Below, piece by piece: positions 1 through 64,000 of a stretch of DNA of 64,000 bases; the stretch's first letter is position 1; each line of letters begins with the position of its first letter. The stretch covers positions 682,001-746,000 of the forward strand of contig JAHQIY010000030.1 of the NCBI GenBank assembly GCA_019054805.1. Reading direction: 5' to 3'. The stretch is from Brachionus manjavacas. Its lineage: Eukaryota; Rotifera; Eurotatoria; Ploima; Brachionidae. The translations under genes were made by a program, and so were the position numbers. The notes beneath the pieces were generated by a model that made no database searches, had not been told where the DNA came from, and saw only the letters and a list, made by a program, of their open reading frames with translations.

Positions 1-3000
1 GAATCAAATTGTTCATTAGAAAATAAAGAAAAAATCAACGCTTTGTCACTCAAGTTGTCAATAAGTAAAGAAATAAGTAAATTTTGCATCGTCAATCAAG
101 CTGTACATTAGAAATAAAGAAAAAATTGACGCTTTGTCACTCAAGTTGTCAATAAGTCAAGAAAAAAGTAAATTATCGCCTCGTTAATCAAGCTTTTCAT
201 TAGAAATTAAGGTAAAAACTGGTCGCTATTTCACTCAAGTTTTTCTAGAGTAAAGAAATAAGTAAATTCACGCCTCGTGAATCAAATTAGTCATACTAAA
301 AGTAATAAGTAAATTACCGCCTTGTAAATCAAGTTTTCCATTAGAAAATTAGGTAAAAAATCAACGCTTTGTCACTCAAGTTGTCAATAAGTCAAGAAAA
401 AAGTAAATTATCGCCTCGTTAATCAAGCTTTTCATTAGAAAATAGGGTAAAAAATCAACGTTTTGTCACTCAAAGTTTCATAAGTAAAGAAATAAGTAAA
501 TTTTGCATCGTCAATCAAGCTGTACATTAGAAATAAAGAAAAAATTGACGCTTTGTCACTCAAGTTGTCAATAAGTCAAGAAAAAAGTAAATTATCGCCT
601 CGTTAATCAAGCTTTTCATTAGAAATTAAGGTAAAAACTGGTCGCTATTTCACTCAAGTTTTCCTAGAGTAAAGAAATAAGTAAATTGACGCCTCGTGAA
701 TCAAATTGTTCATTAGAAAATAAAGTAAAAATTGAGGCTTTGTCACTCAAGTTGTCAATATGTCAAGAAAAAAGTAAATTATCGCCTCGTTAATCAAGCT
801 TTTCATTAGAAAATAGGGTAAAAAATCAACGCTTTGTCACTCAAGTTGTCAATAAGTAAAGAAATAAGTAAATTTTGCATCGTCAATCAAGCTGTACATT
901 AGAAATAAAGAAAAAATTGACGCTTTGTCACTCAAGTTGTCAATAAGTCAAGAAAAAAGTAAATTATCGCCTCGTTAATCAAGCTTTTCATTAGAAATTA
1001 AGTTAAAAACTGGTCGCTATTTCACTCAAGTTTTCCTAGAGTAAAGAAATAAGTAAATTGACGTCCCGTGAATCAAATTGTTCATACGAAAAGTAATAAG
1101 TAAATTACCGCTTTGTAAATCAAGTTTTCCATTAGAAAATTAGGTAAAAAATCAACGCTTTGTCACTCAAGTTGTCAATAAGTAAAGAAATAAGTTAATT
1201 TACTCCTGGTTAATCAAGCTGTTCATTAGAAAATAAGGTAAAATATGAAGCTTTGTCACTCAAGTTGACAATAGGTAAAGAAATTAGATTATTTTCGCCT
1301 GGTCAATCAAGCTGTTCATTAGAGAATAGGGTAAAAAATCAACGCTTTGTCACTCGAGTTGTCAATAAGTAAAGAAAAAAGTAAATTTGGCATCGTCAAT
1401 CAAGCTGTACATTAGAAATAAAGAAAAATCAACGCTTTGTCACTCAAATTGTCAATTAGTAAAGAAATAAGTAAATTTTGCATCGTCAATCAAGCTGTAC
1501 ATTAGAAATAAAGAAAAAATTGACGCTTTGTCACTCAAGTTGTCAATAAGTAAAGAAAAAAGTGAATTTGGCATCGTCAATCAAGCTGTGCATTTGAAAT
1601 AAATAAAAAAAAAAGACGCTTTGTCACTCAAGTTTTCAATAAGTAAAGAAATAAGTAAATTTGGCATCGTCAATCAAGCTGTACATTAGAAATAAAGAAA
1701 AAATCAACGCTTTGTCACTCAAAATGTCAATAAGTAAAGAAATATGTTAATTTACGCCTGGTCAATAAAGCTGTTCATTAGAAAATAAAGTAAAAAATTA
1801 CGCTTTGTCACTCAAGTTGTCAATAAGTAAAGAAATATGTTAATTTACGCCTGGTCAATAAAGCTGTTCATTAGAAAATAAAGTAAAAATTGACGCTTTG
1901 TCACTCAAGTTGTCAATTAGTAAAGAAAAAAGTAAATTTGGCATCGTCAATCAAGCTGTACATTAGAAAATAAGGTAAAATATGAAGCTTTGTCACTCAA
2001 GTTGTCAATAAGTAAAGAAATATGTTAATTTACGCCTGGTCAATAAAGCTGTTCATTAGAAAATAAAGTAAAAATTGACGCTTTGTCACTCAAGTTGTCA
2101 ATTAGTAAAGAAAAAAGTAAATTTGGCATCGTCAATCAAGCTGTACATTAGAAATAAAGAAAAAATCAACGCTTTGTCACTCAAGTTGTCAATAAGTAAA
2201 GAAATATGTTAATTTACGCCTGGTCAATAAAGCTGTTCATTAGAAAATAAAGTAAAAAATTACGCTTTGTCACTCAAGTTGTCAATAAGTAAAGAAATAA
2301 GTAAATTAACGCCTCGTCAATCAAGCTGTTTATTAGAAAATAAAGTAAGAATTGACGCTTTGTCACTCAAGTTGTCAATAAGTAAAGAAATAAGTTAATT
2401 TACTCCTGGTAAATCAAGCTGTTCATTAGAAAATAAGGTAAAATATGAAGCTTTGTCACTCAAGTTGACAATAGGTAAAGAAATTAGATTATTTACGCCT
2501 GGTCAATCAAGCTGCTCATTAGAAAATAAAGTAAAAATTGACGCTTTGTCACTCAAGTTGTCAATAAGTCAAGAAAAAAGTAAATTATCGCCTCGTTAAT
2601 CAAGATTTTCATTAGAAATTAAGGTAAAAACTGGTCGCTATTTCACCCAAGTTTTTCTAGAGTAAAGAAATAAGTAAATTGACGCCTCGTGAATCAAATT
2701 GTTCATACGAAAAGTAATAAGTAAATTACCGCCTTGTAAATTAAGTTTTCCATTAGAAAATTTGGTAAAAAATCAACGCTTTGTCACTCAAGTTTTAAAT
2801 AAGTAAAGAAATAAGTTAATTTACTCCTGATAATTCAAGCTGTTCATTATAAAATAAGGTAAAATATGACGCTTTGTCACTCAAGTTGACAATAGGTAAA
2901 GAAATTAGATTATTTACGCCTGGTCAATCAAGCTGTTCATTAGAGAATAGGGTAAAAAATCAACGCTTTGTCACTCAAGTTGTCAATTAGTAAAGAAAAA

Positions 3001-5680
3001 AGTAAATTTGGCATCGTCAATCAAGCTGTACATTAGAAATAAAGAAAAAATCAACGCTTTGTCACTCAAGTTGTCAATAAGTAAAGAAATATGTTAATTT
3101 ACGCCTGGTCAATAAAGCTGTTCATTAGAAAATAAAGTAAAAAATTACGCTTTGTCACTCAAGTTGTCAATAAGTAAAGAAATAAGTAAATTAACGCCTC
3201 GTCAATCAAGCTGTTTATTAGAAAATAAAGTTAGAATTGACGCTTTGTCACTCAAGTTCTCAATAAGTAAAGAAATAAGTTAATTTACTCCTGGTAAATC
3301 AAGCTGTTCATTAGAAAATAAGGTAAAATATGAAGCTTTGTCACTCAAGTTGACAATAGGTAAAGAAATTAGATTATTTACGCCTGGTCAATCAAGCTGT
3401 TCATTAGAAAATAGGGTAAAAAATCAACACTTTGTCATTCAAGTTGTCAATAAGTAAAGAAATAAGTAAATTTGGCATCGTCAATCAAGCTGTACATTAG
3501 AAATAAAGAAAAAATCAACGCTTTGTCACTCAAGTTGTCAATAAGTAAAGAAATAAGTAAATTTGGCATCGTCAATCAAGCTGTACATTAGAAAAAAAGA
3601 AAAATTGACGCCTTGTCACTCAAGTTGTCAATAAGTAAAGAAATATGTTAATTTACGACTGGTCAATAAAGCTGTTCATTTGAAAATAAAGTAAAAATTT
3701 ACGCTTTGTCACTTAAGTTGTCAATAAGTCAAGAAAAAAGTAAATTGACGCCTCGTCAATCAAGCTGTTCATTAGAAAATAAAGTAAGAATTGACGCTTT
3801 GTCACTCAAGTTGTCAATAAGTCAAGAAAAAAGTAAATTACCGCCTCGTAAATCAAGCTGAACATTAGAAATAAAGATAAAATTGACGCTTTGTCACTCA
3901 AGTTGTCAATAAGTAAAGAAATAAGTAAATTTACGCTTCGTAAATCAAGCTGTTCATTGGAAAATATGGTAAAAAATAGACGTTTTGTCAATCAAATTGT
4001 CCATTATTAAAGAAATAAGTAAATGAGCGCCTCGTTAATCAAGCTTTTCCTTAGAAAAGTGGGTTATAAATCAACGCTTTGTCACTCAAGTTGTCAATAA
4101 GTAAAGAAATAAGTAAATTTTGCATCGTCAATCAAGCTGTACATTAGAAATAAAGAAAAAATTGACGCTTTGTCACTCAAGTTGTCAATAAGTCAAGAAA
4201 AAAGTAAATTATCGCCTCGTAAATCAAGCTTTTCATTAGAAATTAAGGTAAAAACTGGTCGCTATTTCACTCAAGTTTTCCTAGAGTAAAGAAATAAGTA
4301 AATTGACGCCTCGTGAATCAAATTGTTCATTAGAAAATAAAGTAAAAATTGACGCTTTGTCACTCAAGTTGTCAATTAGTAAAGAATCAAGTAAATTTAC
4401 GCTTTTTCACTCAAGTTGTCAATAAGTAAAGAAGTAAGTAAATTAGCGCCTCGTTAATAAAGTTATCCATCAGAATATAAGGTAAAAATTTTACTATTTG
4501 GCACTCAAGTTGTAAATAAGTAAAGAAATAAGTAAATTGACGCCTCGTGAATCAAATTGTTCATACTAAAAGTAATAAGTAAGTTACCGCCTTGTAAATC
4601 AAGTTTTTCATTAGAAAATTAGGTAAAAATTCAACGCTTTGTCACTCAAGTTGTCAATAAGTCAAGAAAAAAGTAAATTATCGCCTCGTTAATCAAGCTT
4701 TTCATTAGAAAATAGGGTAAAAAATCAACATTTTGTCACTCAAAGTTTCAATAAGTAAAGAAATAAGTAAATTTGGCATCGTCAATCAAGCTGTACATTA
4801 GAAATAAAGAAAAAATCAACGCTTTGTCACTCAAGTTGTCAATAAGTCAAGAAAAAAGTAAATTATCGCCTCGTGAATCAAATTGTTCATTAGAAAATAA
4901 AGTAAAAATTGACGCTTTGTCACTCAAGTTGTCAATTAGTAAAGAATCAAGTAAATTTACGCTTTGTCACTCAAGTTGTCAATAAGTAAAGAAGCAAGGA
5001 AATTAGCGCCTCGTTAATAAAGTTATCCATCAGAATATAAGGTAAAAATTTTACTATTTGGCACTCAAGTTGTAAATAAGTAAAGAAATAAGTAAATTGA
5101 CGCTTTGTCCCTCAAGTTATCAATAAGTAAAGAAAAAAGTAAATTACCGACTTGTAAATTAAGATGCCCATAAGAAAAGAAATAAGTAAATTGACGTCTC
5201 GTGAATCAAATTGTTCATTAGAAAATAAAGTAAAAATTGACGCTTTGTCACTCAAGTTGTCAATAAGTCAAGAAAAAAAGTAAATTATCGCCTCGTTAAT
5301 CAAGCTTTTCATTAGAAAATAGGGTAAAAAATCAACGCTTTGTCACTCAAGTTGTCAATAAGTAAAGAAATAAGTAAATTTTGCATCGTCAATCAAGCTG
5401 TACATTAGAAATAAAGAAAAATTGACGCTTTGTCACTCAAGTTGTCAATAAGTCAAGAAAAAAGTAAATTATCGCCTCGTTAATCAAGCTTTTCATTAGA
5501 AATTAAGGTAAAAACTGGTCGCTATTTCACTCAAGTTTTCCTAGAGTAAAGAAATAAGTAAATTGACGCCTCGTGAATCAAATTGTTCATACGAAAATTA
5601 ATAAGTAAATTACCGCCTTGTAAATCAAGTTTTCCATAAGAAAATTAGGTAAAAAATCAACGCTTTGTCACTCAAGTTGT
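1..5680 (+). repeat. Mixed A/B dimers with scattered HOR modules
   Basis: Variant units alternate without one regular HOR. Recurrent variants are TTTGCATCGTCAATCAAG, TTATCGCCTCGTTAATCAAG, CTGGTCGCTATTTCACTCAAG and TTCATACGAAAAGTAATAAG. A module with AAATATGAAGCTTTG recurs at 1241, 2441 and 3325, spaced 1200 and 884 bp, and about 440 bp around it (2078-2520 and 2962-3405) is nearly identical. A TCATACTAAAAG module recurs at 291 and 4561. No genes. Confidence 0.85.
4350..4445 (+). repeat. Two consecutive A modules without a B
   Basis: A module A with CAATTAGTAAAGAATCAAG is followed directly by another beginning CGCTTTTTCACTCAAG, at a 46-47 bp spacing. The usual B module between them is missing. 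The same arrangement recurs near 4910-5010. Confidence 0.8.
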
Positions 5681-8600
5681 CAATAAGTAAAGAAATAAGT
5701 TAATTTACGCCTGGTAAATCAAGCTGTTCATTAGAAAATAAAGTAAAAATTGACGCTTTGTCACTCAAGTTGTCAATAAGTCAAGAAAAAGTAAATTATC
5801 GCCTCGTTAATCAAGCTTTTCCTTAGAAAATTGGGTAAAAAATCAACGCTTTGTCACTCAAGTTGTCAATAAGTAAAGAAATAAGTAAATTTTGCATCGT
5901 CAATCAAGCTGTACATTAGAAATAAAGAAAAAATTGACGCTTTGTCACTCATGTTGTCAATAAGTCAAGAAAAAAGTAAATTATCGCCTCGTTAATCAAG
6001 CTTTTCATTAGAAATTAAGGTAAAAACTGGTCGCTATTTCACTCAAGTTTTCCTAGAGTAAAGAAATAAGTAAATTGACGCCTCGTGAATCAAATTGTTC
6101 ATACGAAAATTAATAAGTAAATTACCGCCTTGTAAATCAAGTTTTCCATAAGAAAATTAGGTAAAAAATCAACGCTTTGTCACTCAAGTTGTCAATAAGT
6201 AAAGAAATAAGTTAATTTACGCCTGGTAAATCAAGCTGTTCATTAGAAAATAAAGTAAAAATTAACGCTTTGTCACTAAAAATGTCAATAAGTAAGGAAA
6301 TAATTAAATTAGCGCATCGTAAAATTAAGTTGTCCATTCGAAAAAAAGGTAAAAATTGGTCGCTTTTTCACTCAAGTTGTCAATAAGTAAAGAAACAAGT
6401 AAAAAACCGCCTCGTAAATCAAGTTGTCCATTAAAAAATGAGGTACAAAATGGACGCATTGTCACTCAAGTTGTCAATAAGTAAAGAAATAAGTAAATTA
6501 GCGCCTCGTAAATCAAGCTGTTCATTAGAAAATAAGGTAAAAATAGACGCTTTGTCACTCAAGTTGTCAATAAGTAAAGAAATATGTGAATTTACGCTTG
6601 GTCAATAAAGCTGTTCATTAGAAAATAAAGTAAAAATTGACGCTTTGTCACTCAAGTTGTCAATAAGTAAGGAAATAAGTTAATTGACGCCTCGTCAATC
6701 AAGCTGTTCATTAGAAAATAAAATAAGAATTGACGCTTTGTCACTCAAGTTGTCAATAAGTCAAGAAAAAGTAAATTACCGCCTCGTAAATCAAGCTGAA
6801 CATTAGAAATAAAGATAAAATTGACGCTTTGTAACTCAAGTTGTCAATAAGTAAAGAAATAAGTAAATTGAGGCCTTGTAACTCAAGTTGTCAATAAGTA
6901 AAGAAATAAGTTAATTTACGCCTGGTAAATCAAGCTGTTCATTAGAAAATAAAGTAAAAATTGACGCTTTGTCACTCAAGTTGTCAATAAGTCAAGAAAA
7001 AAGTAAATTATCGCCTCGTTAATCAAGCTTTTCCTTAGAAAATTGGGTAAAAAATCAACGCTTTGTCACTCAAGTTGTCAATAAGTAAAGAAATAAGTAA
7101 ATTTTGCATCGTCAATCAAGCTGTACATTAGAAATAAAGAAAAAATTGACGCTTTGTCACTCAAGTTGTCAATAAGTAAAGAAATAAGTTAATTTACTCC
7201 TGGTAAATCAAGCTGTTCATTAGAAAATAAGGTAAAAACTGGTCGCTATTTCACTCAAGTTTTCCTAGAGTAAAGAAATAAGTAAATTGACGCCTCGTGA
7301 ATCAAATTGTTCATAAGAAAATTAATAAGTAAATTACCGCCTTGTAAATCAAGTTTTCCATAAGAAAATTAGGTAAAAAATCAACGCTTTGTCACTCAAG
7401 TTGTCAATAAGTAAAGAAATAAGTTAATTTACGCCTGGTAAATCAAGCTGTTCATTAGAAAATAAAGTAAAAATTGACGCATTGTCACTAAAAATGTCAA
7501 TAAGTAAGGAAATAATTAAATTAGCGCATCGTAAAATTAAGTTGTCCATTCGAAAAAAAGGTAAAAATTGGTCGCTTTTTCACTCAAGTTGTCAATAAGT
7601 AAAGAAACAAGTAAAAAACCGCCTCGTAAATCAAGTTGTCCATTAAAAAATGAGGTACAAAATGGACGCATTGTCACTCAAGTTGTCAATAAGTAAAGAA
7701 ATAAGTAAATTAGCGCCTCGTAAATCAAGCTGTTCATTAGAAAATAAGGTAAAAATAGACGCTTTGTCACTCAAGTTGTCAATAAGTAAAGAAATATGTG
7801 AATTTACGGTTGGTCAATAAAGCTGTTCATTAGAAAATAAAGTAAAAATTGACGCTTTGTCACTCAAGTTGTCAATAAGTAAGGAAATAAGTTAATTGAC
7901 GCCTCGTCAATCAAGCTGTTCATTAGAAAATAAAGTAAGAATTGACGCTTTGTCACTCAAGTTGTCAATAAGTCAAGAAAAAGTAAATTACCGCCTCGTA
8001 AATCAAGCTGAACATTAGAAATAAAGATAAAATTGACGCTTTGTAACTCAAGTTGTCAATAAGTAAAGAAATAAGTAAATTGAGGCCTTGTAACTCAAGT
8101 TGTCAATAAGTAAAGAAATAAGTTAATTTACGCCTGGTAAATCAAGCTGTTCATTAGAAAATAAAGTAAAAATTGACGCTTTGTCACTCAAGTTGTCAAT
8201 AAGTCAAGAAAAAAGTAAATTATCGCCTCGTTAATCAAGCTTTTCCTTAGAAAATTGGGTAAAAAATCAACGCTTTGTCACTCAAGTTGTCAATAAGTAA
8301 AGAAATAAGTAAATTTTGCATCGTCAATCAAGCTGTACATTAGAAATAAAGAAAAAATTGACGCTTTGTCACTCAAGTTGTCAATAAGTAAAGAAATAAG
8401 TTAATTTACTCCTGGTAAATCAAGCTGTTCATTAGAAAATAAGGTAAAAGATGAAGCTTTGTCACTCAAGTTGACAATAGGTAAAGAAATTAGATTATTT
8501 ACGCCTGGTCAATCAAGCTGTTCATTAGAGAATAGGGTAAAAAATCAACGCTTTGTCACTCAAGTTGTCAATAAGTAAAGAAAAAAGTAAATTTGGCATC

Positions 8601-9290
8601 GTCAATCAAGCTGTACATTAGAAATAAAGAAAAAATCAACGCTTTGTCACTCAAGTTGTCAATAAGTAAGGAAATAATTAAATTAGCGCATCGTAAAATT
8701 AAGTTGTCCATTCGAAAAAAAGGTAAAAATTGGTCGCTTTTTCACTCAAGTTGTCAATAAGTAAAGAAACAAGTAAAAAACCGCCTCGTAAATCAAGTTG
8801 TCCATTAAAAAATGAGGTACAAAATGGACGCATTGTCACTCAAGTTGTCAATAAGTAAAGAAATAAGTAAATTAGCGCCTCGTAAATCAAGCTGTTCATT
8901 AGAAAATAAGGTAAAAATAGACGCTTTGTCACTCAAGTTGTCAATAAGTAAAGAAATATGTGAATTTACGCTTGGTCAATAAAGCTGTTCATTAGAAAAT
9001 AAAGTAAAAATTGACGCTTTGTCACTCAAGTTGTCAATAAGTAAGGAAATAAGTTAATTGACGCCTCGTCAATCAAGCTGTTCATTAGAAAATAAAGTAA
9101 GAATTGACGCTTTGTCACTCAAGTTGTCAATAAGTCAAGAAAAAAGTAAATTACCGCCTCGTAAATCAAGCTGAACATTAGAAATAAAGATAAAATTGAC
9201 GCTTTGTAACTCAAGTTGTCAATAAGTAAAGAAATAAGTAAATTGAGGCCTTGTAACTCAAGTTGTCAATAAGTAAAGAAATAAGTTAAT
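5680..9290 (+). repeat. 1.2-kb HOR, three tandem copies
   Basis: The marker AATAAGTAAGGAAATAATTA occurs at 6287, 7499 and 8661, and TTGAGGCCTTGTAACTC at 6868, 8080 and 9243. Periods are 1212 and 1162-1163 bp, close to 13 and 12.5 dimers, so the third copy has lost one half-unit. The copies look nearly identical by eye and share rare variants such as AAGTAAAAAACCGCCTCG and AAATGGACGCATTGTCAC. Boundaries are approximate. Confidence 0.9.
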
Positions 9291-10150
9291 TTACTCCTGG
9301 TAAATCAAGCTGTTCATTAGAAAATAAGGTAAAAGATGAAGCTTTGTCACTCAAGTTGTCAATAAGTCAAGAAAAAAGTAAATTATCGCCTCGTTAATCA
9401 AGCTTTTCCTTAGAAAATTGGGTAAAAAATCAACGCTTTGTCACTCAAGTTGTCAATAAGTAAAGAAATAAGTAAATTTTGCATCGTCAATCAAGCTGTA
9501 CATTAGAAATAAAGAAAAAATTGACGCTTTGTCACTCAAGTTGTCAATAAGTAAAGAAATAAGTTAATTTACTCCTGGTAAATCAAGCTGTTCATTAGAA
9601 AATAAGGTAAAAGATGAAGCTTTGTCACTCAAGTTGACAATAGGTAAAGAAATTAGATTATTTACGCCTGGTCAATCAAGCTGTTCATTAGAGAATAGGG
9701 TAAAAAATCAACGCTTTGTCACTCAAGTTGTCAATAAGTAAAGAAAAAAGTAAATTTGGCATCGTCAATCAAGCTGTACATTAGAAATAAAGAAAAAATC
9801 AACGCTTTGTCACTCAAGTTGTCAATTAGTAAAGAAAAAAGTGAATTTGGCATCGTCAATCAAGCTGTGCATTTGAAATAAATAAAAAAAAAAGACGCTT
9901 TGTCACTCAAGTTGTCAATAAGTAAAGAAATAAGTTAATATACGCCTGGTAAATCAAGCTGTTCATTAGAAAATAAAGTAAAAATTGACGCTTTGTCACT
10001 CAAGTTGTCAATAAGTCAAGAAAAAAGTAAATTATCGCCTCGTTAATCAAGCTTTTCATTAGAAAATAGGGTAAAAAATCAACGCTTTGTCACTCAAGTT
10101 GTCAATAAGTAAAGAAATAAGTAAATTTTGCATCGTCAATCAAGCTGTAC
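9290..10150 (+). repeat. Mixed satellite between the 1.2-kb and 2.3-kb HORs
   Basis: Ordinary A/B dimers sharing variants with 1.2-3.4 kb (TTTACTCCTGGTAAATCAAG, AATTAGATTATTTACGCC, and a module ending in an A run then GACGC at about 9890). Nothing else is visible. Confidence 0.8.
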
Positions 10151-47157: not shown

Positions 47158-47160
47158 TAA

Positions 47161-47680: not shown

Positions 47681-47684
47681 AAAT

Positions 47685-47693: not shown

Positions 47694-47940
47694 ACTCAAA
47701 ATGTCAAAAAATAATGAAAAAAGTAAATTACCGCCTTGTAAATCAAGTTGTCCATAAGTAAAGAAATAAGAAAAGTTGTCAATTAGTAATGAAAAAAGTA
47801 AATTACTGCCTCCCAAATCAAGTTGACCATTAGAAAAGCGGGTAAAAAATCAACGCTTTGTCACTCAAGTTGTTAATAAGTATAGATATAAGTAAATTAC
47901 CGCCTCATTAATTAAGCTGTATTTATGAAAATAAGGTTAA
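47694..47940 (+). repeat. Satellite immediately right of the transposon
   Basis: Dimers with TTACTGCCTCCCAAATCAAG and TTGACCATTAGAAAAGCGGG, markers also found in 38.9-46.2 kb. This shows continuity of the array across the insertion. Confidence 0.85.
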
Positions 47941-49610: not shown

Positions 49611-49613
49611 GTA

Positions 49614-51600: not shown

Positions 51601-54600
51601 TTCGCCTCATCAATCAAGCTGTACATTAAAAAATAAAGTAAAAATTGAAGCTTGTCTTTCAAGTTCTCAATAAGTAAAGAAATAAGTAAATTGGCGCATC
51701 GTAAATCAAATTGTCCATAAGAAAAGAAATAAGTAAAATTGACGCCTCGTTAATCAAATTATTCATACGAAAAGTATTAAGTAAATTACCGCCTCGTAAA
51801 TCAAGTTGTCCATTAGAAAAAAAGGTAAAGATGGACGCTTTGTCACTCAAGTTGTCAATAAGTAAAGAAACAAGTAAATGACCGACTCATCAATCAAGCT
51901 GTTCATAAGAAAATAAGGTAAAAAATGAACGCTTTGTAACTCAAGTTTTCCCTTAGTAAAGAAATAAGAAAAATTATCGCCTCGAAAATCAAGTTGTGCT
52001 TTAGAAAATAAGGTAAAAAATGGACGCTTTATCACTCAAGTTGTAAATTAGTGAATAAAAAAGTAAATTACCGACTCATTAATCAAGAAGTTCATAAGGA
52101 ATGAAAAAGGTAAATAGAGGTCTTGTCAATTATGTTTTCCATTAGAAAATTGGGTAAAAAATCGATGCTTAGTCACTCAAGTTTTCAATAAGTAAAGAAA
52201 CCAGTAAATGACCGACTCATTAATCAAGCTGTTCATAAGAAAATAAGGTAAAAAATTGACGCTTTGTAACTCAAATTGTCCTTTAGAAAAAAAAAAAGTA
52301 AATTACCGCCTCGTAAATCAAATTGTCCATTAGAAAAGTAATAAGTAAATCACCGCCCTGTTAATCGAGTTGTCCATTAGAAAATTAGTTAAAAAATGGT
52401 CGCTTTTTCACTCAAGTTGTCAATAATTAAGGAAATAAGTTAATTACTGCCTCATTAATCAAGCTGTACATAAGAAATTAAGGTAAAAAATGAACGCTTT
52501 GTCACTCAAGTTGTCCCAAAGTAAAGAAATAAGAAAATTAGCGCCTCGAAAATAAAGTTGTCTATTAGAAAATAAGGTAAAAATGGACTCTTCGTCACTC
52601 AAGATGTCCATAAGTAAAGAACTTAGTAAATTGACGCTTCGACATTCAATTAGTTCATTAGTAAAGAAAAAATAAATGAAGTTATTTTAAATTATGTTGT
52701 CAATTAGAAAATAAGGTAAAAAATTAACGCTTTGTCACTCAAGTTGTCCCAAAGTAAACAAATAAGAAAATAAGCGCCTCGAAAATCAAGTTGTGCATTT
52801 GAAAATAAGGTAAAAAATGGACACTCTATCACTCAAGTTGTCCATTAGTAAAGAAGTAAGTAAATTACCGCCTCGTAAATCAAGTCGTCCAATAGAAAAA
52901 AATTAAAAAATTTACTATTTGTTACTCAAAATGTCAATAAGTCGAGTAGAAAGAAAATTTTCGCCTCATCAATCAAGCTGTACATTAAAAAATAAAGTAA
53001 AAATTGAAGCTTTGTCTTTCAAGTTCTCAATAAGTAAAGAAATAAGTAAATTGGCGCATCGTAAATCAAATTGTCCATAAGAAAAGTAATAAGTAAAAAA
53101 CCGCCTCGTAAATCAAGTTTTTCATTGGAAAATAAGGTAAAAAATCAAAGCTTATTCACTCAAGTTGTCAATAAGTAAAGAAATAAGTAAAATTGACGCC
53201 TCGTTAATCAAATTATTCATACGAAAAGTATTAAGTAAATTACCGCCTCGTAAATCAAGTCGTCCATTAGAAAATAAGTTAAAAAATTTACTATTTGTCA
53301 CTCATAATGTCAATAAGTCGAGTAGAAAGAAAATTTTCGCCTCATCAATCAAGCTGTACATTAAAAAATAAAGTAAAAATTGAAGCTTTGTCTTTCATGT
53401 TCTCAATAAGTAAAGAAATAGGTAAATTGGCGCATCGTAAATCAAATTGTCCGTAAGAAAAGTAATAAGTAAAAAACCGCCTCGTAAATCAAGTTTTCCA
53501 TTGAAAAATAAGGTAAAAAATCAACGCTTAATCACTCAAGTTGTCAATAAGTAAAGAAATAAGTAAAATTGACGCCTCAGTAATCAAATTATTCATACGA
53601 AAAGTACTAAGTAAATTACCGCCTCGTAAATCAAGTCGTCCATTAGAAAATAAGTTAAAAAATTTACTATTTGTCACTCAAAATGTCAATAAGTAGAGAA
53701 GAAAGAAAATTTTCGCCTCATCAATCAAGCTGTACATTAAAAAATAAAGTAAAAATTGAAGCTTGTCTTTCAAGTTCTCAATAAGTAAAGAAATAAGTAA
53801 ATTGGCGCATCGTAAATCAAATTGTCCATAAGAAAAGAAATAAGTAAAATTGACGCCTCGTTAATCAAATTATTCATACGAAAAGTATTAAGTAAATTAC
53901 CGCCTCGTAAATCAAGTTGTCCATTAGAAAAAATGTAAAGATGGACGCTTTGTCACTCAAGTTGTCAATAAGTAAAGAAACAAGTAAATGACCGACTCAT
54001 CAATCAAGCTGTTCATAAGAAAATAAGGTAAAAAATGAACGCTTTGTAACTCAAGTTTTCCCTTAGTAAAGAAATAAGAAAAATTATCGCCTCGAAAATC
54101 AAGTTGTGCTTTAGAAAATAAGGTAAAAATGGACGCTTTATCACTCAAGTTGTAAATTAGTGAATAAAAAAGTAAATTACCGACTCATTAATCAAGAAGT
54201 TCATAAGGAATGAAAAAGGTAAATAGAGGTCTTGTCAATTATGTTTTCCATTAGAAAATTGGGTAAAAAATCGATGCTTAGTCACTCAAGTTTTCAATAA
54301 GTAAAGAAACCAGTAAATGACCGACTCATTAATCAAGCTGTTCATAAGAAAATAAGGTAAAAAATTGACGCTTTGTAACTCAAATTGTCCTTTAGAAAAA
54401 AAAAAAGTAAATTACCGCCTCGTAAATCAAATTGTCCATTAGAAAAGTAATAAGTAAATCACCGCCCTGTTAATCGAGTTGTCCATTAGAAAATTAGTTA
54501 AAAAATGGTCGCTTTTTCACTCAAGTTGTCAATAATTAAGGAAATAAGTTAATTACTGCCTCATTAATCAAGCTGTACATAAGAAATTAAGGTAAAAAAT

Positions 54601-57040
54601 GAACGCTTTGTCACTCAAGTTGTCCCAAAGTAAAGAAATAAGAAAATTAGCGCCTCGAAAATAAAGTTGTCTATTAGAAAATAAGGTAAAAAATGGACTC
54701 TTCGTCACTCAAGATGTCCATAAGTAAAGAACTTAGTAAATTGACGCTTCGACATTCAATTAGTTCATTAGTAAAGAAAAAAAATAAATGAAGTTCTTGT
54801 CAATTATGTTGTCCATTAGAAAATAAGGTAAAAAATTAACGCTTTGTCACTCAAGTTGTCCCAAAGTAAACAAATAAGAAAATAAGCGCCTCGAAAATCA
54901 AGTTGTGCATTTGAAAATAAGGTAAAAAATGGACACTCTATCACTCAAGTTGTCCATTAGTAAAGAAGTAAGTAAATTACCGCCTCGTAAATCAAGTCGT
55001 CCAATAGAAAAAAAATTAAAAAATTTACTATTTGTTACTCAAAATGTCAATAAGTCGAGTAGAAAGAAAATTTTCGCCTCATCAATCAAGCTGTACATTA
55101 AAAAATAAAGTAAAAATTGAAGCTTTGTCTTTCAAGTTCTCAATAAGTAAAGAAATAAGTAAATTGGCGCATCGTAAATCAAATTGTCCATAAGAAAAGT
55201 AATAAGTAAAAAACCGCCTCGTAAATCAAGTTTTTCATTGGAAAATAAGGTAAAAAATCAAAGCTTATTCACTCAAGTTGTCAATAAGTAAAGAAATAAG
55301 TAAAATTGACGCCTCGTTAATCAAATTATTCATACGAAAAGTATTAAGTAAATTACCGCCTCGTAAATCAAGTCGTCCATTAGAAAATAAGTTAAAAAAT
55401 TTACTATTTGTCACTCATAATGTCAATAAGTCGAGTAGAAAGAAAATTTTCGCCTCATCAATCAAGCTGTACATTAAAAAATAAAGTAAAAATTGAAGCT
55501 TTGTCTTTCATGTTCTCAATAAGTAAAGAAATAGGTAAATTGGCGCATCGTAAATCAAATTGTCCGTAAGAAAAGTAATAAGTAAAAAACCGCCTCGTAA
55601 ATCAAGTTTTCCATTGAAAAATAAGGTAAAAAATCAACGCTTAATCACTCAAGTTGTCAATAAGTAAAGAAATAAGTAAAATTGACGCCTCAGTAATCAA
55701 ATTATTCATACGAAAAGTACTAAGTAAATTACCGCCTCGTAAATCAAGTCGTCCATTAGAAAATAAGTTAAAAAATTTACTATTTGTCACTCAAAATGTC
55801 AATAAGTAGAGAAGAAAGAAAATTTTCGCCTCATCAATCAAGCTGTACATTAAAAAATAAAGTAAAAATTGAAGCTTGTCTTTCAAGTTCTCAATAAGTA
55901 AAGAAATAAGTAAATTGGCGCATCGTAAATCAAATTGTCCATAAGAAAAGAAATAAGTAAAATTGACGCCTCGTTAATCAAATTATTCATACGAAAAGTA
56001 TTAAGTAAATTACCGCCTCGTAAATCAAGTTGTCCATTAGAAAAAGGTAAAGATGGACGCTTTGTCACTCAAGTTGTCAATAAGTAAAGAAACAAGTAAA
56101 TGACCGACTCATCAATCAAGCTGTTCATAAGAAAATAAGGTAAAAATGAACGCTTTGTAACTCAAGTTTTCCCTTAGTAAAGAAATAAGAAAAATTATCG
56201 CCTCGAAAATCAAGTTGTGCTTTAGAAAATAAGGTAAAAATGGACGCTTTATCACTCAAGTTGTAAATTAGTGAATAAAAAAGTAAATTACCGACTCATT
56301 AATCAAGAAGTTCATAAGGAATGAAAAAGGTAAATAGAGGTCTTGTCAATTATGTTTTCCATTAGAAAATTGGGTTTAAAAATCGATGCTTAGTCACTCA
56401 AGTTTTCAATAAGTAAAGAAACCAGTAAATGACCGACTCATTAATCAAGCTGTTCATAAGAAAATAAGGTAAAAAATTGACGCTTTGTAACTCAAATTGT
56501 CCTTTAGAAAAAAAAAAAGTAAATTACCGCCTCGTAAATCAAATTGTCCATTAGAAAAGTAATAAGTAAATCACCGCCCTGTTAATCGAGTTGTCCATTA
56601 GAAAATTAGTTAAAAAATGGTCGCTTTTTCACTCAAGTTGTCAATAATTAAGGAAATAAGTTAATTACTGCCTCATTAATCAAGCTGTACATAAGAAATT
56701 AAGGTAAAAAATGAACGCTTTGTCACTCAAGTTGTCCCAAAGTAAAGAAATAAGAAAATTAGCGCCTCGAAAATAAAGTTGTCTATTAGAAAATAAGGTA
56801 AAAAATGGACTCTTCGTCACTCAAGATGTCCATAAGTAAAGAACTTAGTAAATTGACGCTTCGACATTCAATTAGTTCATTAGTAAAGAAAAAAAATAAA
56901 TGAAGTTCTTGTCAATTATGTTGTCCATTAGAAAATAAGGTAAAAAATTAACGCTTTGTCACTCAAGTTGTCCCAAAGTAAACAAATAAGAAAATAAGCG
57001 CCTCGAAAATCAAGTTGTGCATTTGAAAATAAGGTAAAAA
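50745..57040 (+). repeat. 2.11-kb HOR, three tandem copies
   Basis: GTTACTCAAAATGTCAATAAG occurs at 50811, 52921 and 55033, with periods 2110 and 2112 bp. Copies start at about 50745, 52855 and 54967. They are almost identical over about 2.1 kb: most differences are A-run lengths, for example the run before GGTAAAGATGGACGC near 51820, 53930 and 56040. The first copy differs more from the others near 52680 (GTTATTTTAAATTATG against GTTCTTGTCAATTATG). The 376-bp HOR lies inside its left half, so levels are nested. Confidence 0.93.
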
Positions 57041-57468
57041 ATGGTCGCTTTTTCACTCAAGTTGTCAATAATTAAGGAAATAAGTTAATTACTGCCTCAT
57101 TAATCAAGCTGTACATAAGAAATTAAGGTAAAAAATGAACGCTTTGTCACTCAAGTTGTCCCAAAGTAAAGAAATAAGAAAATTAGCGCCTCGAAAATAA
57201 AGTTGTCTATTAGAAAATAAGGTAAAAAATGGACTCTTCGTCACTCAAGATGTCCATAAGTAAAGAACTTAGTAAATTGACGCTTCGACATTCAATTAGT
57301 TCATTAGTAAAGAAAAAAAATAAATGAAGTTCTTGTCAATTATGTTGTCCATTAGAAAATAAGGTAAAAAATTAACGCTTTGTCACTCAAGTTGTCCCAA
57401 AGTAAACAAATAAGAAAATAAGCGCCTCGAAAATCAAGTTGTGCATTTGAAAATAAGGTAAAAAATGG
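56621..57468 (+). repeat. 424-bp tandem duplication
   Basis: TCGCTTTTTCACTCAAGTTG followed by TCAATAATTAAGG occurs at 56621 and 57045, 424 bp apart. The copies contain the same nine modules, and the second continues into ACACTCTATCACTCAAG. The duplication lies at the end of the third 2.11-kb copy. Confidence 0.88.
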
Positions 57469-60400
57469 ACACTCTATCACTCAAGTTGTCCATTAGTAAA
57501 GAAGTAAGTAAATTACCTACTCATAAATCAAGGAGTTCATTAGGATTTAAAAAAGTAAATAGAGGTCTCATCAATTATGTTGTTCAGTAGAAAATATGGT
57601 AAAAAATGGACTTTTTGTCACTCAAGATGTCCATAAGAAAAGAACTTAGTTAATTGACGCTTCGACACTCAATTAGTTCATTAGTTAAGAAAAGGATATG
57701 GAGTTCTAGTCAATTATGTTGTCCATTAGAAAATAAGGTAAAAAATGAACGCTTTGTCACTCAAGTTGTCCCAAAGTAAAGAAATAAGAAATTTGGCGCC
57801 TCGAAAATCAAGTTGTGCATTAGAAATTAAGGTAAAAAATGGACTCTTTGTCACTCAAGATGTCCATGAGTAAAGAACTTAGTAAATTGACGCTTAGACA
57901 CTCAATTAGTTCATTAGTAAAGAAAAAAATAAATGGTGTTTTCGTCAATTATGTTGTCCATTAGAAAATAAGGTAAATGGACTCTTTGGCACTCAAGTTG
58001 TCCCAAAGTAAAGAAATAAGAAAATTAGCGCCTCGAAAATCAAGTTGTCTTTTAGAAAATAAGGTAAAAAATGGACTCTTTGTCACTCAAGAAGTCCATA
58101 AGTAAAGAACTTGGTAAATTGACGCTTCGACACTCAATTAGTTCATTAGTAAAGAATAAAAAAAAATGGAGTTCTCGTCAATTATGTTGTCCATTAGAAA
58201 ATAAGGTAAAAAATGAACGCTTTGTCACTCAAGTTGTCCCAAAGTAAAGAAATAAGAAAATTAGCGCCTCGAAAATCAACTTGTGCATTAGAAATTAAGG
58301 TAAAAAATGGACTCTTTGGCACTCAAGATGTCCATAAGTAAAGAAAAGTGAAAATTGACGCTTCGACACTCAAATAGTTCATTAGTAAAGAAAAAAATAA
58401 ATGGAGTTCTCGTCAATTATGTTGTCAATTAGAAAATAAGGTAAAAATGGACGCTTTGTCACTCAAGTTGTCCATTAGTAAAGAAAAAAGAAAATAAGCG
58501 CCTCGAAAATCAAGTTGTGCATTAGAAAATAAGGTAAAAAAGCGACACTTTGTCACTCAAGTTGTCCATAAGTAAAGAACTTAGTAAATTGACGCTTCGA
58601 CACTCAATTTGTTCATTATTAAAGAAAAGGATATGGAGTTCTAGTCAATTATGTTGTCCATTAGAAAATAAGGTAAAAAATGAACGCTTTGTCACTCAAG
58701 TTGTCCCAAAGTAAAGAAATAAGAAAATTAGCGCCTCGAAAATCAACTTGTGCATTAGAAATTAAGGTAAAAAATGGACTCTTTGGCACTCAAGATGTCC
58801 ATAAGTAAAGAAAAGTAAAAATTGACGCTTCGACACTCAAATAGTTCATTAGTAAAGAAAAAATAAATGGAGTTCTCGTCAATTATGTTGTCAATTAGAA
58901 AATAAGATAAAAATGAACGCTTTGTCACTCAAGTTGTCCCAAAGTAAAGAAATAAGAAAATTAGCGCCTCGAAAATCAAGTTGTCTATTAGAAAATAAGG
59001 TAAAAAATGGACTCTTTGTCACTCAAGAAGTCCATAAGTAAAGAACTTAGTAAATTGACGCTTCGACACTCAATTAGTTCATTAGTAAAGAAAAAAGTAA
59101 ATGGTGTTTTCGTCAATTATGTTGTCCATTAGAAAATAAGGGAAAAAATGAACGCTTTGTCACTCAAGTTGTCCCAAAGTAAAGAAATAAGAAAATTAGC
59201 GCCTCGAAAATCAACTTGTGCATTAGAAATTAAGGTAAAAAATGGACTCTTTGGCACTCAAGATGTCCATAAGTAAAGAAAAGTGAAAATTGACGCTTCG
59301 ACACTCAAATAGTTCATTAGTAAAGAAAAAAATAAATGGAGTTCTCGTCAATTATGTTGTCAATTAGAAAATAAGATAAAAAATGAACGCTTTGTCACTC
59401 AAGTTGTCCCAAAGTAAAGAAATAAGAAATTTGGCGCCTCGAAAATCAAGTTGTGCATTAGAAAATAAGGTAAAAAATGGATTTTTTGTCACTCAAGATG
59501 TCCATATGTAAAGAACTTAGTAAATTGACGCTTCTACACTCAATTAGTTCATTAGTAAAGAAAAGGATATGGAGTTCTAGTCAATTATGTTGTCTATTAG
59601 AAAATAAGGTAAAAAATGGATTTTTTGTCACTCAAGTTGTCCATTAGTAAAGAAAAAAGAAAATTGACGCTTCGACATTCAATTAGTTCATTAGTAAAGA
59701 AAAAAAATAAATGAAGTTCTTGTCAATTATGTTGTCCATTAGAAAATAAGGTAAAAAATTAACGCTTTGTCACTCAAGTTGTCCCAAAGTAAACAAATAA
59801 GAAAATAAGCGCCTCGAAAATCAAGTTGTGCATTTGAAAATAAAGGTAAAAAATGGACACTCTATCACTCAAGTTGTCCATTAGTAAAGAAGTAAGTAAA
59901 TTACCTACTCATAAATCAAGGAGTTCATTAGGATTTAAAAAAGTAAATAGAGGTCTCATCAATTATGTTGTTCAGTAGAAAATTAGGTAAAAAATGGACT
60001 TTTTGTCACTCAAGATGTCCATAAGTAAAGAACTTAGTAAATTGACGCTTCGACACTCAATTAGTTCATTAGTAAAGAAAAAAATAAATGGAGTTCTCGT
60101 CAATTATGTTGTCAATTAGAAAATAAGATAAAAAATGAACGCTTTGTCACTCAAGTTGTCCCAAAGTAAAGAAATAAGAAATTTGGCGCCTCGAAAATCA
60201 AGTTGTGCATTAGAAATTAAGGTAAAAAATGGACTCTTTGTCACTCAAGATGTCCATGAGTAAAGAACTTAGTAAATTGACGCTTAGACACTCAATTAGT
60301 TCATTAGTAAAGAAAAAAATAAATGGTGTTTTCGTCAATTATGTTGTCCATTAGAAAATAAGGTAAAAAATGGACTCTTTGGCACTCAAGTTGTCCCAAA

Positions 60401-61860
60401 GTAAAGAAATAAGAAAATTAGCGCCTCGAAAATCAAGTTGTCTATTAGAAAATAAGGTAAAAAATGGACTCTTTGGCACTCAAGATGTCCATAAGTAAAG
60501 AACTTAGTAAATTGACGCTTCGACACTCAATTAGTTCATTAGTAAAGAATAAAAAAAAATGGAGTTCTCGTCAATTATGTTGTCCATTAGAAAATAAGGT
60601 AAAAAATGAACGCTTTGTCACTCAAGTTGTCCCAAAGTAAAGAAATAAGAAAATTAGCGCCTCGAAAATCAACTTGTGCATTAGAAATTAAGGTAAAAAT
60701 GGACTCTTTGGCACTCAAGATGTCCATAAGTAAAGAAAAGTGAAAATTGACGCTTCGACACTCAAATAGTTCATTAGTAAAGAAAAAAATAAATGGAGTT
60801 CTCGTCAATTATGTTGTCAATTAGAAAATAAGATAAAAAATGAACGCTTTGTCACTCAAGTTGTCCCAAAGTAAAGAAATAAGAAAATTATCCCCTCGAA
60901 AATCAAGTTGTGCATTAGAAATTAAGGTAAAAAATGGACTCTTTGTCACTCAAGAAGTCCATAAGTAAAGAACTTAGTAAATTGACGCTTCGACACTCAA
61001 TTAGTTCATTAGTAAAGAATAAAAAAAAATGGAGTTCTCGTCAATTATGTTGTCCATTAGAAAATAAGGTAAAAAATGAACGCTTTGTCACTCAAGTTGT
61101 CCCAAAGTAAAGAAATAAGAAAATTAGCGCCTCGAAAATCAACTTGTGCATTAGAAATTAAGGTAAAAAATGGACTCTTTGGCACTCAAGATGTCCATAA
61201 GTAAAGAAAAGTAAAAATTGACGCTTCGACACTCAAATAGTTCATTAGTAAAGAAAAAAATAAATGGAGTTCTCGTCAATTATGTTGTCAATTAGAAAAT
61301 AAGATAAAAAATGAACGCTTTGTCACTCAAGTTGTCCCAAAGTAAAGAAATAAGAAAATTAGCGCCTCGAAAATCAAGTTGTCTATTAGAAAATAAGGTA
61401 AAAAATGGACTCTTTGTCACTCAAGAAGTCCATAAGTAAAGAACTTAGTAAATTGACGCTTCGACACTCAATTAGTTCATTAGTAAAGAAAAAAGTAAAT
61501 GGTGTTTTCGTCAATTATGTTGTCCATTAGAAAATAAGGGAAAAAATGAACGCTTTGTCACTCAAGTTGTCCCAAAGTAAAGAAATAAGAAAATTAGCGC
61601 CTCGAAAATCAACTTGTGCATTAGAAATTAAGGTAAAAAATGGACTCTTTGGCACTCAAGATGTCCATAAGTAAAGAAAAGTGAAAATTGACGCTTCGAC
61701 ACTCAAATAGTTCATTAGTAAAGAAAAAAATAAATGGAGTTCTCGTCAATTATGTTGTCAATTAGAAAATAAGATAAAATGAACGCTTTGTCACTCAAGT
61801 TGTCCCAAAGTAAAGAAATAAGAAATTTGGCGCCTCGAAAATCAAGTTGTGCATTAGAAA
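57281..61860 (+). repeat. 2.39-kb HOR, two copies
   Basis: CGCTTCGACATTCAATTAG occurs at 57281 and 59668, and the variant CGCTTAGACACTC at 57891 and 60281. A module with AAAAAAGTAAATGGTGTTTTCG follows 59059 and 61457. Offsets are 2387, 2390 and 2398 bp. Some internal modules do not correspond (the one at 58593 against 60986), so the copies are mosaic. Confidence 0.85.
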
Positions 61861-61960
61861 TTAAGGTAAAAAATGGACTCTTTGTCACTCAAGATGTCCA
61901 TGAGTAAAGAACTTAGTAAATTGACGCTTCGACACTCAATTAGTTCATTAGTAAAGAAAA
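57658..61960 (+). repeat. 235-bp HOR of five modules
   Basis: CGCTTCGACACTCAA or close variants start at 57658, 57891, 58123, 58359, 58593, 58826, 59059, 59294, 59529, then 60046, 60281, 60516, 60751, 60986, 61222, 61457, 61692 and 61925. Spacing is 232-236 bp apart from one disruption at 59.53-60.05 kb (139 and 378 bp). Module order is: A with TTGTCCCAAAGTAAAG; B with CGCCTCGAAAATCAAG; A with GATGTCCATAAGTAAAG; CGCTTCGACACTCAATTAG; and AGTTCTCGTCAATTATG. In part of the block two versions alternate (AGAACTTAGTAAATT and AGAAAAGTGAAAATT), giving a 470-bp period. Confidence 0.92.
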
Positions 61961-64000
61961 AAGTAAATGGTGTTTTCGTCAATTATGTTGTCCATTAGAA
62001 AATAAGGTAAAAAATGGACTCTTTGGCACTCAAGATGTCCATAAGTAAAGAAATAAGAAAATTAGCGCCTCGAAAATCAAGTTGTTCATTAGAAATTAAG
62101 GTAAAAAATGAACGCTTTGTCACTCAAGTTGTCCCAAAGTAAAGAAATAAGAAAATTAGCGCCTCGAAAATCAAGTTGTCTTTTAGAAAATAAGGTAAAA
62201 AAGCGACACTTTGTCACTCAAGTTGTCCATAAGTAAAGAACTTAGTAAATTGACGCTTCGACACTCAATTTGTTCATTATTAAAGAAAAAAAAAATGGAG
62301 TTCTCGACAATTATGTTGTCCATTAGAAAATAAGTTAAAAAATGAACTTTTTGTCTCTCAAAATGTCCTAAAGTAAAGAAATAAAAAAATTAGCGCCTCG
62401 AAAATCAAGTTGTGCATTAGAAAATAAGGTAAAAATGGACTCTTTGGCACTCAAGATGTCCATAAGTAAAGAAAAGTGAAAATTGACGCTTCGACACTCA
62501 AATAGTTCATTAGTAAAGAAAAAAATAAATGGAGTTCTCGTCAATTATGTTGTCAATTAGAAAATTAGGTAAAAAATGGACACTTTGTCACTCAAGATGT
62601 CCATAATTAAAGAACTAAGTAAATTGACACTTCGACACTCAAATAGTTCATTAGTAAAGAAAAAAGTAAATTACCGACTCATTAATCATGGAGTTCATAA
62701 GGAATGAAAAAGGTAAATAGAGGTCTCGTAACTTATGTTGTCCTTTAGAAAATAAGGTAAAAAATGGACGCTTTGTCACTCAAGTTGTCAATAATTAAAT
62801 AATAAAGTAAATTACGGACTCATTAATCATGCAGTTCATAAGGATTTAAAAAAGTAAATAGAGGTCTCGTCAATTATGTTGTCTATTAGATAATAAGGTA
62901 AAAAATGGACACTTTGTCACTCAAGATGTCCATAAGTAAAGAACTTAGTAAATTGACGCTTCGACACTCAATTAGTTAATTAGTAAAGAAAAAAATAAAT
63001 GGAGTTCTCGTCAATTATGTTGTCAATTAGAAAATAAGTTAAAAAAATGAACGCTTTGTCACTCAAGTTGTCCCAAAGTAAAGAAATAAGAAAATTATCC
63101 CCTCGAAAATCAAGTTGTGCATTAAAAATACGGTAATAAATGGACACTTTATCACTCAAGTTGTCCATTAGTAAAGAATTAAGTAGATTACCTACTATTA
63201 ATCAAGGAGTTCATTAGAATTAAAAAAAGTAAATAGAGGTCTCGTCAATTATGCTGTATATTAGAAAATAAGGTAAAAAATGTACTCTTTGTCACTCAAG
63301 ATGTCCATAAGTAAAGAACTTAGTAAATTGACGTTTCGACACTCAATTAGTTCATTAGTAAAGAAAAAATAAATGGTGTTCTCGTCAATTATGTTGTCAA
63401 TTAGAAAATAATTTAAAAAATGAACGCTTTGTCACTCAAGTTGTCCCAAAGTAAAGAAATAAGAAAATTAGCGCCTCGAAAATCAAGTTGTGCATTAAAA
63501 ATACGGTAATAAATGGACACTTTATCACTCAAGTTGTCCAATAGTAAAGAAGTAAGTAAATTACCTACTCATTAATCAAGGAGTTCATTAGGATTTAAAA
63601 AAGGAAATAGAGGTCTCGTCAATTATGTTGTCCATTAGAAAATAAGTTAAAAAATGAACGCTTTGTCACTCAAGTTGTCCCAAAGTAAAGAAATTAGAAA
63701 ATTTGCGCCTCGAAAATCAAGTTGTGCATTAGAAAATAAGGTAAAAAATTGACGCTTTATCACTCAAGTTGTCCATTTGTAAAGAATTAAGTAAATTACC
63801 TACTCATTAAACAAGGAGTTCATTAGTAAAGAAAAAAATAAATGGTGTTCTCGTCAATTATGTTTTTAATTAGAAAATAATTTAAAAAAGAACGCTTTGT
63901 CACTCAAGATGTCCCAAAGTAAAGAAATAAGAAAATTAGCGCCTCGAAAATCAAGTTGTACATTAGAAAATAAGGTAAAAAATGGACGCTTTATCACTCA
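61960..64000 (+). repeat. Mixed satellite at the right edge
   Basis: Units of the 235-bp HOR are mixed with modules of the 141-bp type (AGTTCATTAGGATTTAAAA and TAAATAGAGGTCTCG at about 62.7, 62.85, 63.2 and 63.6 kb). The array continues past the window, ending mid-unit at TTTATCACTCA. No genes. Confidence 0.85.

What the first reader, a model, noticed from the sequence alone, without database searches (positions are those of the whole stretch)
1..64000. 64 kb of one satellite with at least four nested repeat levels
One 46/47-bp module explains all but about 735 bp of the window. Modules form 93-bp dimers, dimers form HORs of 141 bp to 2.6 kb, and the larger HORs contain smaller ones (376 inside 2112; 235 inside 470 inside about 2390). 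All units run in one direction. I do not recognise the family by name.
Basis: seen in the sequence. Interest (0 to 1): 0.7.

Follow-up and report, generated by a model that had tools for sequence, protein, structure and literature searches.

The report
Mirror-layered satellite with nested repeats
The window is non-coding DNA built from one 47-letter unit copied over and over at several scales; it belongs to a larger block, in what looks like an animal genome, whose sampled parts flip direction at one point and resemble each other in layers on both sides of the flip. Such repeats are ordinary in kind; the mirrored layout is the unusual part.

Summary
Apart from one 735-bp insert (46950-47684), the window reads as 46/47-bp modules of one AT-rich satellite on one strand. 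Nesting is real at two places: 235 in 470 in 2387 bp at 57.2-62.1 kb, and 376 in 2112 bp at 50.7-57.1 kb. Most of the long periods listed are separate block duplications of about 2-3 copies, not one homogenised HOR array. The insert is a transposable element (9-bp target duplication, long inverted ends). The window lies near the end of a 750-kb contig (C30) of an unidentified, apparently animal, 114-Mb genome. Outside it the array is not one-way: sampled stretches at 500-643.8 kb are inverted, the switch is at C30:643,790, and subfamilies are layered in mirror order around it. Three diagnostic oligos were placed only on C30 and near one end of contig C2, as far as listed; another, far commoner 337-bp satellite sits at other contig ends. 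Best reading: a heterochromatic satellite block at one locus, grown by in-register tandem duplication around an old inversion; centromere function is possible, untested. Closest in print: macro-dyad satellites of Tribolium and the mirrored layers of human centromere 8.

The parts
1..46949 (+). Satellite, 'middle' subfamily: A modules mostly alternating with B/C/D modules (93-bp dimers), many block duplications of 0.3-2.6 kb
5198..8449 (+). 1213-bp tandem block duplication, 94.9%, about 2.7 copies
9240..14974 (+). 2318-bp tandem block duplication (50 modules), 92.7%, about 2.5 copies
18994..31719 (+). Zone of recurring odd-length modules: 56 bp (15 copies, 7 distinct), 14 of the 15 directly followed by a 24-bp (11 copies, 3 distinct) or 25-bp module (3 copies, 1 distinct)
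26427..31597 (+). 2624-bp block (57 modules), two copies, 99.45%
31694..35052 (+). 1026-bp block (22 modules), about 3.3 copies, 95.7%
38622..46471 (+). Zone with a recurring 39-bp module (11 copies, 3 distinct)
46941..46949 (.). Left copy of the 9-bp target-site duplication CGCTTTGTC
46950..47684 (.). 735-bp transposable-element insertion; inverted ends align over about 105-115 bp with gaps (only the outer 120 bp of each end were aligned; the outermost 3-4 bp do not match); 316 bp of it have a 92.4% relative at one place on C2 (9,659,346-9,659,658; in overlapping loci L039-L041)
47685..47693 (.). Right copy of the 9-bp target-site duplication
47685..57100 (+). Satellite, transitional between middle and outer subfamilies (scores 302 with window 1-46949, 261 with 57200-64000)
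50746..57108 (+). 2112-bp HOR (45 modules), three copies, 99.2%; 376-bp (8-module) repeats in about the first 1 kb of each unit
57200..64000 (+). Satellite, 'outer' subfamily, rich in A-B-A-D-B pentamers
57202..62147 (+). Nested HORs: 94 + 141 = 235 bp, 470 bp, 2387 bp (two copies, 96.6%)

Best explanation
The window is part of one heterochromatin-like satellite block at a single place, or two linked places, of an apparently animal genome: C30 about 478-749.6 kb and, in patches, C2 about 9.63-9.83 Mb. It has no coding role. Shown: a 47-bp module; in-register duplication of blocks of 2 to 57 modules, one on top of another, which makes the nested periods; a strand switch at C30:643,790 with one subfamily on both sides of it and another further out on both sides, in the stretches sampled; two fully listed oligonucleotides placed only on C2 and C30. 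Inferred: the duplications arise by unequal exchange or repair synthesis between homologous modules; the C2 and C30 ends flank one assembly gap in one chromosome; the block grew around, or after, an old inversion; it is packed as (peri)centromeric or interstitial heterochromatin without sequence-specific function.
For: Module, dimer and nested lags above permutation. Block duplications of many sizes; the 60 longest self-alignments run from 90% (the search cut-off) to 99.45%, 55 of 60 below 98%, as continuing local duplication with weak homogenisation would leave. In register: 1313 of 1364 modules are 43-49 bp; 40 of the 51 others belong to four recurring lengths (24, 25, 39, 56 bp) with 3, 1, 3 and 7 distinct sequences. 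Strand switch at C30:643,790/643,792. Mirror layering: 26 of 26 500-bp pieces of the minus arm at 600-643.5 kb match best to plus-arm 646-664 kb (85.1-90.6%), a zone that is about 9% of the plus-arm DNA compared; 0 of 19 pieces at 500-509.5 kb do, 7 going to 698-701 kb and 12 to 730-748 kb, and 8 of those 19 match C2 better still. Zone-to-zone scores give inner, middle and outer groups. Confinement: 35 of 35 and 17 of 17 places of two fully listed oligos lie on C2:9.63-9.83 Mb and C30:478-749 kb. Longest stop-free stretch in the window is 101 codons.
Against: The minus arm was read only at 500-510, 600-610 and 640-643.8 kb, and 650-662 kb was not read, so the layering is sampled, not continuous. 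The zone scores favour larger zones, and window 47685-57100 is transitional, so the layers grade into one another. Oligos do not exclude divergent relatives elsewhere; of the 74 reverse matches of the 26-mer only 3 on C2 and 6 in L007 were placed. Against 'weak homogenisation everywhere': at 500.1-505.6 kb a 94-bp dimer stands about 59 times at 89%. The C2-C30 join rests on shared outer subfamily and contig-end position only. The arms are unequal: the inner zone reaches about 44 kb or more on the minus side, about 20 kb on the plus side. Contig ends inside repeats invite misassembly, and there are no reads to check.
Confidence: 0.62

Rival explanations
1. The block is the functional centromere of one chromosome, subterminal in position, with its own chromosome-specific satellite; the mirror layers mark a kinetochore core near C30:643.8 kb.
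For: Mirror order of subfamilies in the samples, as described for human centromere 8 (PMC8099727, passages read); position at a contig end where assembly stops; C30 has a telomere-like start, so the block would be about 0.5 Mb from a chromosome end.
Against: A different 337-bp satellite has 3389 exact 27-mers; the first 100 places listed put it at both ends of C1 and the left end of C2. It is a better candidate for a centromere repeat shared by chromosomes, though lying at both ends of C1 could also mean subtelomeric. No CENP-B box even with one mismatch (0 found, 2.2 expected in shuffles), though many centromeres lack it (recalled). No homogeneous young core in the samples: the 94/95-bp dimers beside the switch match at 79-83%, and the most homogeneous of the sampled dimer arrays, 89%, is far from it.
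Confidence: 0.22
2. The array, its long nearly identical duplications or its inversion are assembly artefacts.
For: C30 ends in the array; duplicates of 99.2-99.45% over 2.5-4.3 kb are of the kind assemblers mis-join; more genome letters could not be fetched.
Against: The two arms beside the switch differ by 9-15%, so it is no simple read fold-back; the family recurs on C2 with other periods (227, 141, 368 bp); 55 of the 60 longest self-alignments are below 98% identity.
Confidence: 0.07
3. The block marks a special chromosome or region (sex chromosome, B chromosome or copy-variable element) rather than ordinary heterochromatin.
For: Placement on two contig ends only. Megabase satellite blocks that vary between individuals are known in the rotifer Brachionus asplanchnoidis (PMC8447722, abstract and passages read).
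Against: No population, sex or coverage data; C30 also holds non-satellite DNA, with a reverse-transcriptase fragment, in the samples at 100-110 and 300-310 kb.
Confidence: 0.08

Closest known systems
Macro-dyad satellite arrays of Tribolium (TmSat1/TmSat2 and relatives; PMC13081366: abstract, section 7 part 1 and Discussion read)
   Same: Satellite arrays that change strand and so form large inverted halves; HORs built from one short ancestral unit; inversion-site sequence shared between copies (two C2 switches share the 19 bp GTGACAAAGCGTAAATCAA).
   Different: In T. madens the longest annotated is 75 kb and thousands of inversion sites lie in putative (peri)centromeres of all chromosomes; here one C30 switch with arms sampled over about 249 kb, at one locus, with subfamilies in mirror order around it. 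The C30 switch sequence differs from the C2 one. Unit sequences were not compared with Tribolium.
Layered alpha-satellite centromere of human chromosome 8 (PMC8099727, passages read)
   Same: Evolutionary layers in mirror order around a middle.
   Different: There the central layer is a near-identical HOR core; here the mirror layers are also inverted in strand, the HORs are low-copy and no homogeneous core was seen in the samples.
Cascading alpha-satellite HORs of primates (search listing only)
   Same: Higher-order repeats inside higher-order repeats.
   Different: 47-bp unit, unrelated genome, block copy numbers mostly 2-3.
rotiSat1 and rotiSat2 of the rotifer Brachionus asplanchnoidis (PMC8447722, abstract and passages read)
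   Same: Large satellite blocks in a small AT-rich animal genome.
   Different: Monomers of 154 and 143 bp with elevated GC; sequences not compared here.

Membership tests
Satellite DNA with higher-order repeats | Head-to-tail tandem monomers of one family in arrays of many kb | tested here: met
   1364 modules outside the insert, period peaks 47 and 94
Satellite DNA with higher-order repeats | Multimonomer units more alike at the HOR lag than neighbouring monomers | tested here: met
   Lag 51 0.959, lag 45 0.996, lag 57 0.995, against lag 1 of 0.62-0.68 and permutation maxima of 0.72-0.80
Satellite DNA with higher-order repeats | Long homogenised HOR array (tens to hundreds of copies) | tested here: not met
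   In the window blocks of 1-2.6 kb stand about 2-3.3 times and the 235-bp unit about ten times per 2.4-kb block. Outside it, at C30:500.1-505.6 kb, a 94-bp dimer stands about 59 times at 89%, so other parts of the block come nearer
Macro-dyad satellite arrays (Tribolium) | Array split into two subarrays of opposite orientation | tested here: met
   Switch at C30:643,790; the three stretches sampled left of it are minus, those right of it plus
Macro-dyad satellite arrays (Tribolium) | Many arrays with conserved inversion sites | tested here: inconclusive
   Three switches seen; two on C2 share 19 bp at the junction, the C30 one does not
Macro-dyad satellite arrays (Tribolium) | Location in (peri)centromeres of all chromosomes | tested here: not met
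   35 of 35 and 17 of 17 places of two oligos on C2 and C30; divergent relatives elsewhere not excluded
Centromeric satellite | CENH3/CENP-A occupancy | not testable with these tools
   No ChIP data
Centromeric satellite with CENP-B box | 17-bp CENP-B box (motif recalled) | tested here: not met
   0 matches with up to one mismatch in the window, 2.2 expected in shuffles
Mutator-like MITE, for the 735-bp insert | 9-bp target-site duplication and long terminal inverted repeats (criteria recalled) | tested here: met
   CGCTTTGTC on both sides; inverted ends score 57, at most 30 in 300 shuffles
Mutator-like MITE, for the 735-bp insert | Related autonomous copy with a Mutator-like transposase | tested here: inconclusive
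   The C2 relative runs into short open stretches; the one tested (78 aa) has no Pfam match over its cut-off

The most novel reading that the evidence does not exclude
A single-locus satellite of at least 250 kb, inverted in strand and layered in mirror order, that has become or is becoming the centromere of one chromosome, showing that inverted mirror architecture rather than sequence recurs at centromeres well outside Tribolium.
Probability: 0.15. Interest if true: 0.72.

Novelty: new variant of a known kind. Interest (0 to 1): 0.42.

Why it matters
The Tribolium madens paper (2026, Discussion read) says that macro-dyad satellite symmetry has been documented only within Tribolium; a search of the held library for 'macro-dyad' with 'satellite' found that paper and one other, which holds the word only in its reference list. 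Other wordings for the same layout were not searched exhaustively. A mirrored, inverted, layered satellite at one locus of a small genome would be a second case, and its low-copy duplications record its growth step by step. It also corrects a reading that would call the window a regular HOR array.

Tried and rejected
Coding origin: longest stop-free stretch 101 codons. Origin from the neighbouring hAT element: on C2 satellite lies beside hAT pieces with different junctions (hAT dimerisation domain in L042), so a shared element is not supported, though only two places were compared. CENP-B box: none. Relationship with the 337-bp satellite: only a 10-bp match. Relatives in viral contigs: one lone 18-mer, non-tandem. 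Species: the COX1 search found one match, a bacterial cyo operon on C21; the 18S search failed twice; arthropod cuticle (PF00379) and nematode cuticle collagen (PF01484) gave no match, but the tool's controls were silent too, so absence is not shown; a text search by assembly statistics listed 20 of 40 papers, none of an evident source. FLYWCH/MULE domain in the C2 relative of the insert: suspected from memory, not confirmed. A 40-base exact oligo found nothing. Literature: the search for 46- and 93-bp satellites gave one paper, on shrimp, not opened; that for a 47-bp satellite listed 20 of 493 papers, none seen by title or abstract start to describe this family; three further searches were seen as listings of 20 of 21, 10 of 34 and 10 of 20 papers, and one found nothing.
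Full report
What is in the window. The 64 kb are, apart from one insert, a single satellite. Autocorrelation peaks at 47, 94, 93, 141 and 235 bp, far above one shuffle. A cyclic 47-column profile cuts the window into 1378 modules with mean pairwise identity 71%; 1364 lie outside the insert and 1313 of these are 43-49 bp. Clustering the 1378 gives a major A type (ACGCTTTGTCACTCAAGTTGTCAATAAGTAAAGAAATAAGTAAATTT, 652 modules) and three others, B (348), C (236) and D (142); A mostly alternates with non-A in 1-46949, while to the right A-B dimers and A-D-B trimers combine. The clusters overlap (silhouette 0.20-0.26 for two to four clusters), so the letters are a convenience.

The nested repeats. 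At 57.2-62.1 kb a five-module A-B-A-D-B unit of 235 bp repeats; the whole is doubled at 2387 bp (96.6%). A 470-bp level lies between: lag 10 exceeds lag 5 clearly in the right half (0.953 against 0.924) and slightly in the left (0.885 against 0.872), though over the whole stretch they are equal. That gives 47, 94/141, 235, 470 and 2387. At 50.7-57.1 kb a 2112-bp unit of 45 modules stands three times at 99.2% and holds 376-bp repeats in about its first 1 kb. Elsewhere there are blocks of 1026, 1164, 1213, 1486, 1692, 2318 and 2624 bp, about 2 to 3.3 copies each. The window is better described as a pile of local tandem duplications of different ages than as one regular hierarchy.

How they arise. 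Duplications keep the module frame. Of the 51 odd-length modules two are cut by the window's edges; 40 belong to four recurring lengths, 56 bp (15 copies, 7 distinct), 24 bp (11, 3), 39 bp (11, 3) and 25 bp (3, 1): a few out-of-frame events, then spread in frame. This fits unequal exchange or repair synthesis between homologous modules; the molecular route is inferred.

The insert. 46950-47684 is flanked by CGCTTTGTC on both sides and has imperfect inverted ends that align over about 105-115 bp (score 57, at most 30 in 300 shuffles). A 316-bp stretch has a 92.4% relative at one place on C2, at the edge of the satellite there. It is a transposable element; the 9-bp duplication suggests a Mutator-like one (recalled), but no transposase domain was confirmed in the relative.

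Where the window lies. It is C30:682,001-746,000 of a 114.17-Mb, 61-contig genome. C30 is 749,555 bp, begins with a degenerate CCCTAA/CCTAAA telomere-like stretch and a 132-bp tandem array, and stops inside the satellite. Gene pieces in other samples include DOMON and Cu2_monooxygen domains about 3 kb apart, a sodium:solute symporter exon and an ABC transporter (L013, L012), and hAT and reverse-transcriptase pieces. The DOMON plus Cu2_monooxygen pair points to an animal (general knowledge); the species was not identified.

Orientation and layers outside the window. Ten-kb samples show no satellite at 1-10, 100-110 and 300-310 kb; minus strand at 500-510, 600-610 and 640-643.79 kb; plus strand at 643.79-650 kb and from 662 to 749.6 kb, apart from the insert. 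The 22 oligo places on C30 below 600 kb are all minus (18, 4). Subfamilies mirror each other around the switch. All 26 500-bp pieces of the minus arm at 600-643.5 kb match best, at 85.1-90.6%, to plus-arm DNA at 646-664 kb, although that inner zone is about 9% of the plus-arm DNA compared; none of the 19 pieces at 500-509.5 kb does: 7 go to 698-701 kb and 12 to 730-748 kb, and 8 of the 19 match C2 better still. A zone-by-zone score table gives inner, middle and outer groups, with C2 among the outer and window 47685-57100 transitional; larger zones are favoured in it. C2 has two strand switches of its own, 44 kb apart, which share 19 bp across the junction; the C30 switch is different.

How widespread it is. 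A 26-mer has 372 exact places, 298 forward and 74 reverse; the first 100 listed are 38 on C2 and 62 on C30, and window, L002 and L003 hold 262 of the 298 forward ones. Of the 74 reverse ones 3 on C2 and 6 in L007 were placed. Two rarer oligos are listed completely: 35 of 35 and 17 of 17 places on C2:9.63-9.83 Mb and C30:478-749 kb. More divergent relatives elsewhere are not excluded. A commoner satellite of this genome is another, unrelated one of 337 bp with 3389 exact 27-mers, at both ends of C1 and the left end of C2 in the first 100 places listed.

What it does. Most likely it is a heterochromatic block without sequence-specific function, at one locus if the C2 and C30 ends flank the same gap. 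Mirror layers are described for human centromere 8 (PMC8099727, passages), and strand-inverted satellite halves for Tribolium (PMC13081366: abstract, section 7 part 1, Discussion), so a centromere role is a real rival. Against it stand the rarity of this satellite beside the 337-bp one, the lack of a CENP-B box (many centromeres lack it, recalled), and no homogeneous core in the samples.

What is known. The T. madens paper states that macro-dyad satellite symmetry had been documented only within Tribolium; the library search for the term found that paper and one that holds it only in its reference list. Nested HORs are known from primates (search listing). Searches for 46-, 47- and 93-bp satellites gave no match among what was listed: one unopened paper and 20 of 493. 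The kind is known; the single-locus, layered and inverted form at this size is a variant.

Limits. 

Noticed in passing
G000:C1 both ends, C2 left end (L010, L011): A 337-bp satellite, one unit from each contig 78-79% alike on opposite strands, 3389 exact 27-mers genome-wide; candidate centromeric or subtelomeric repeat.
   Followed up: partly
L001 (G000:C30:1-10000): Degenerate telomere-like start mixing CCCTAA, CCTAAA and CCCTAAA units, then a 132-bp tandem array.
   Followed up: no
G000:C3, C6, C8, C14, C15, C17, C18, C19, C29, C31, C50, C52: Telomere-like tracts away from base 1 of their contigs; 90 places in all for one pattern, 6 of them on C30.
   Followed up: no
L044 (around G000:C21:120555-121901): A bacterial quinol-oxidase (cyo-like) operon at 33.6% GC in the assembly: symbiont or contaminant; best relatives among the 80 returned are 58% identical.
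   Followed up: partly
L014, L042 (G000:C2:9.630-9.633 and 9.677-9.680 Mb): hAT pieces, 96.6% alike over 1035 bp, each beside a satellite island, with different junctions.
   Followed up: partly
L015 position 1308 and L043 position 893 (G000:C2): Two strand-switch points 44 kb apart share the junction GTGACAAAGCGTAAATCAA although their surroundings are only about 72% alike.
   Followed up: partly
window 18994-31719: A 56-bp fused module directly followed by a 24- or 25-bp one in 14 of 15 cases, at irregular spacing: a tracer of in-frame spreading.
   Followed up: partly
L007 86-5618 (G000:C30:500,086-505,618): A 94-bp dimer array of about 59 copies at 89% matches, more homogeneous than the window's dimers.
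   Followed up: no
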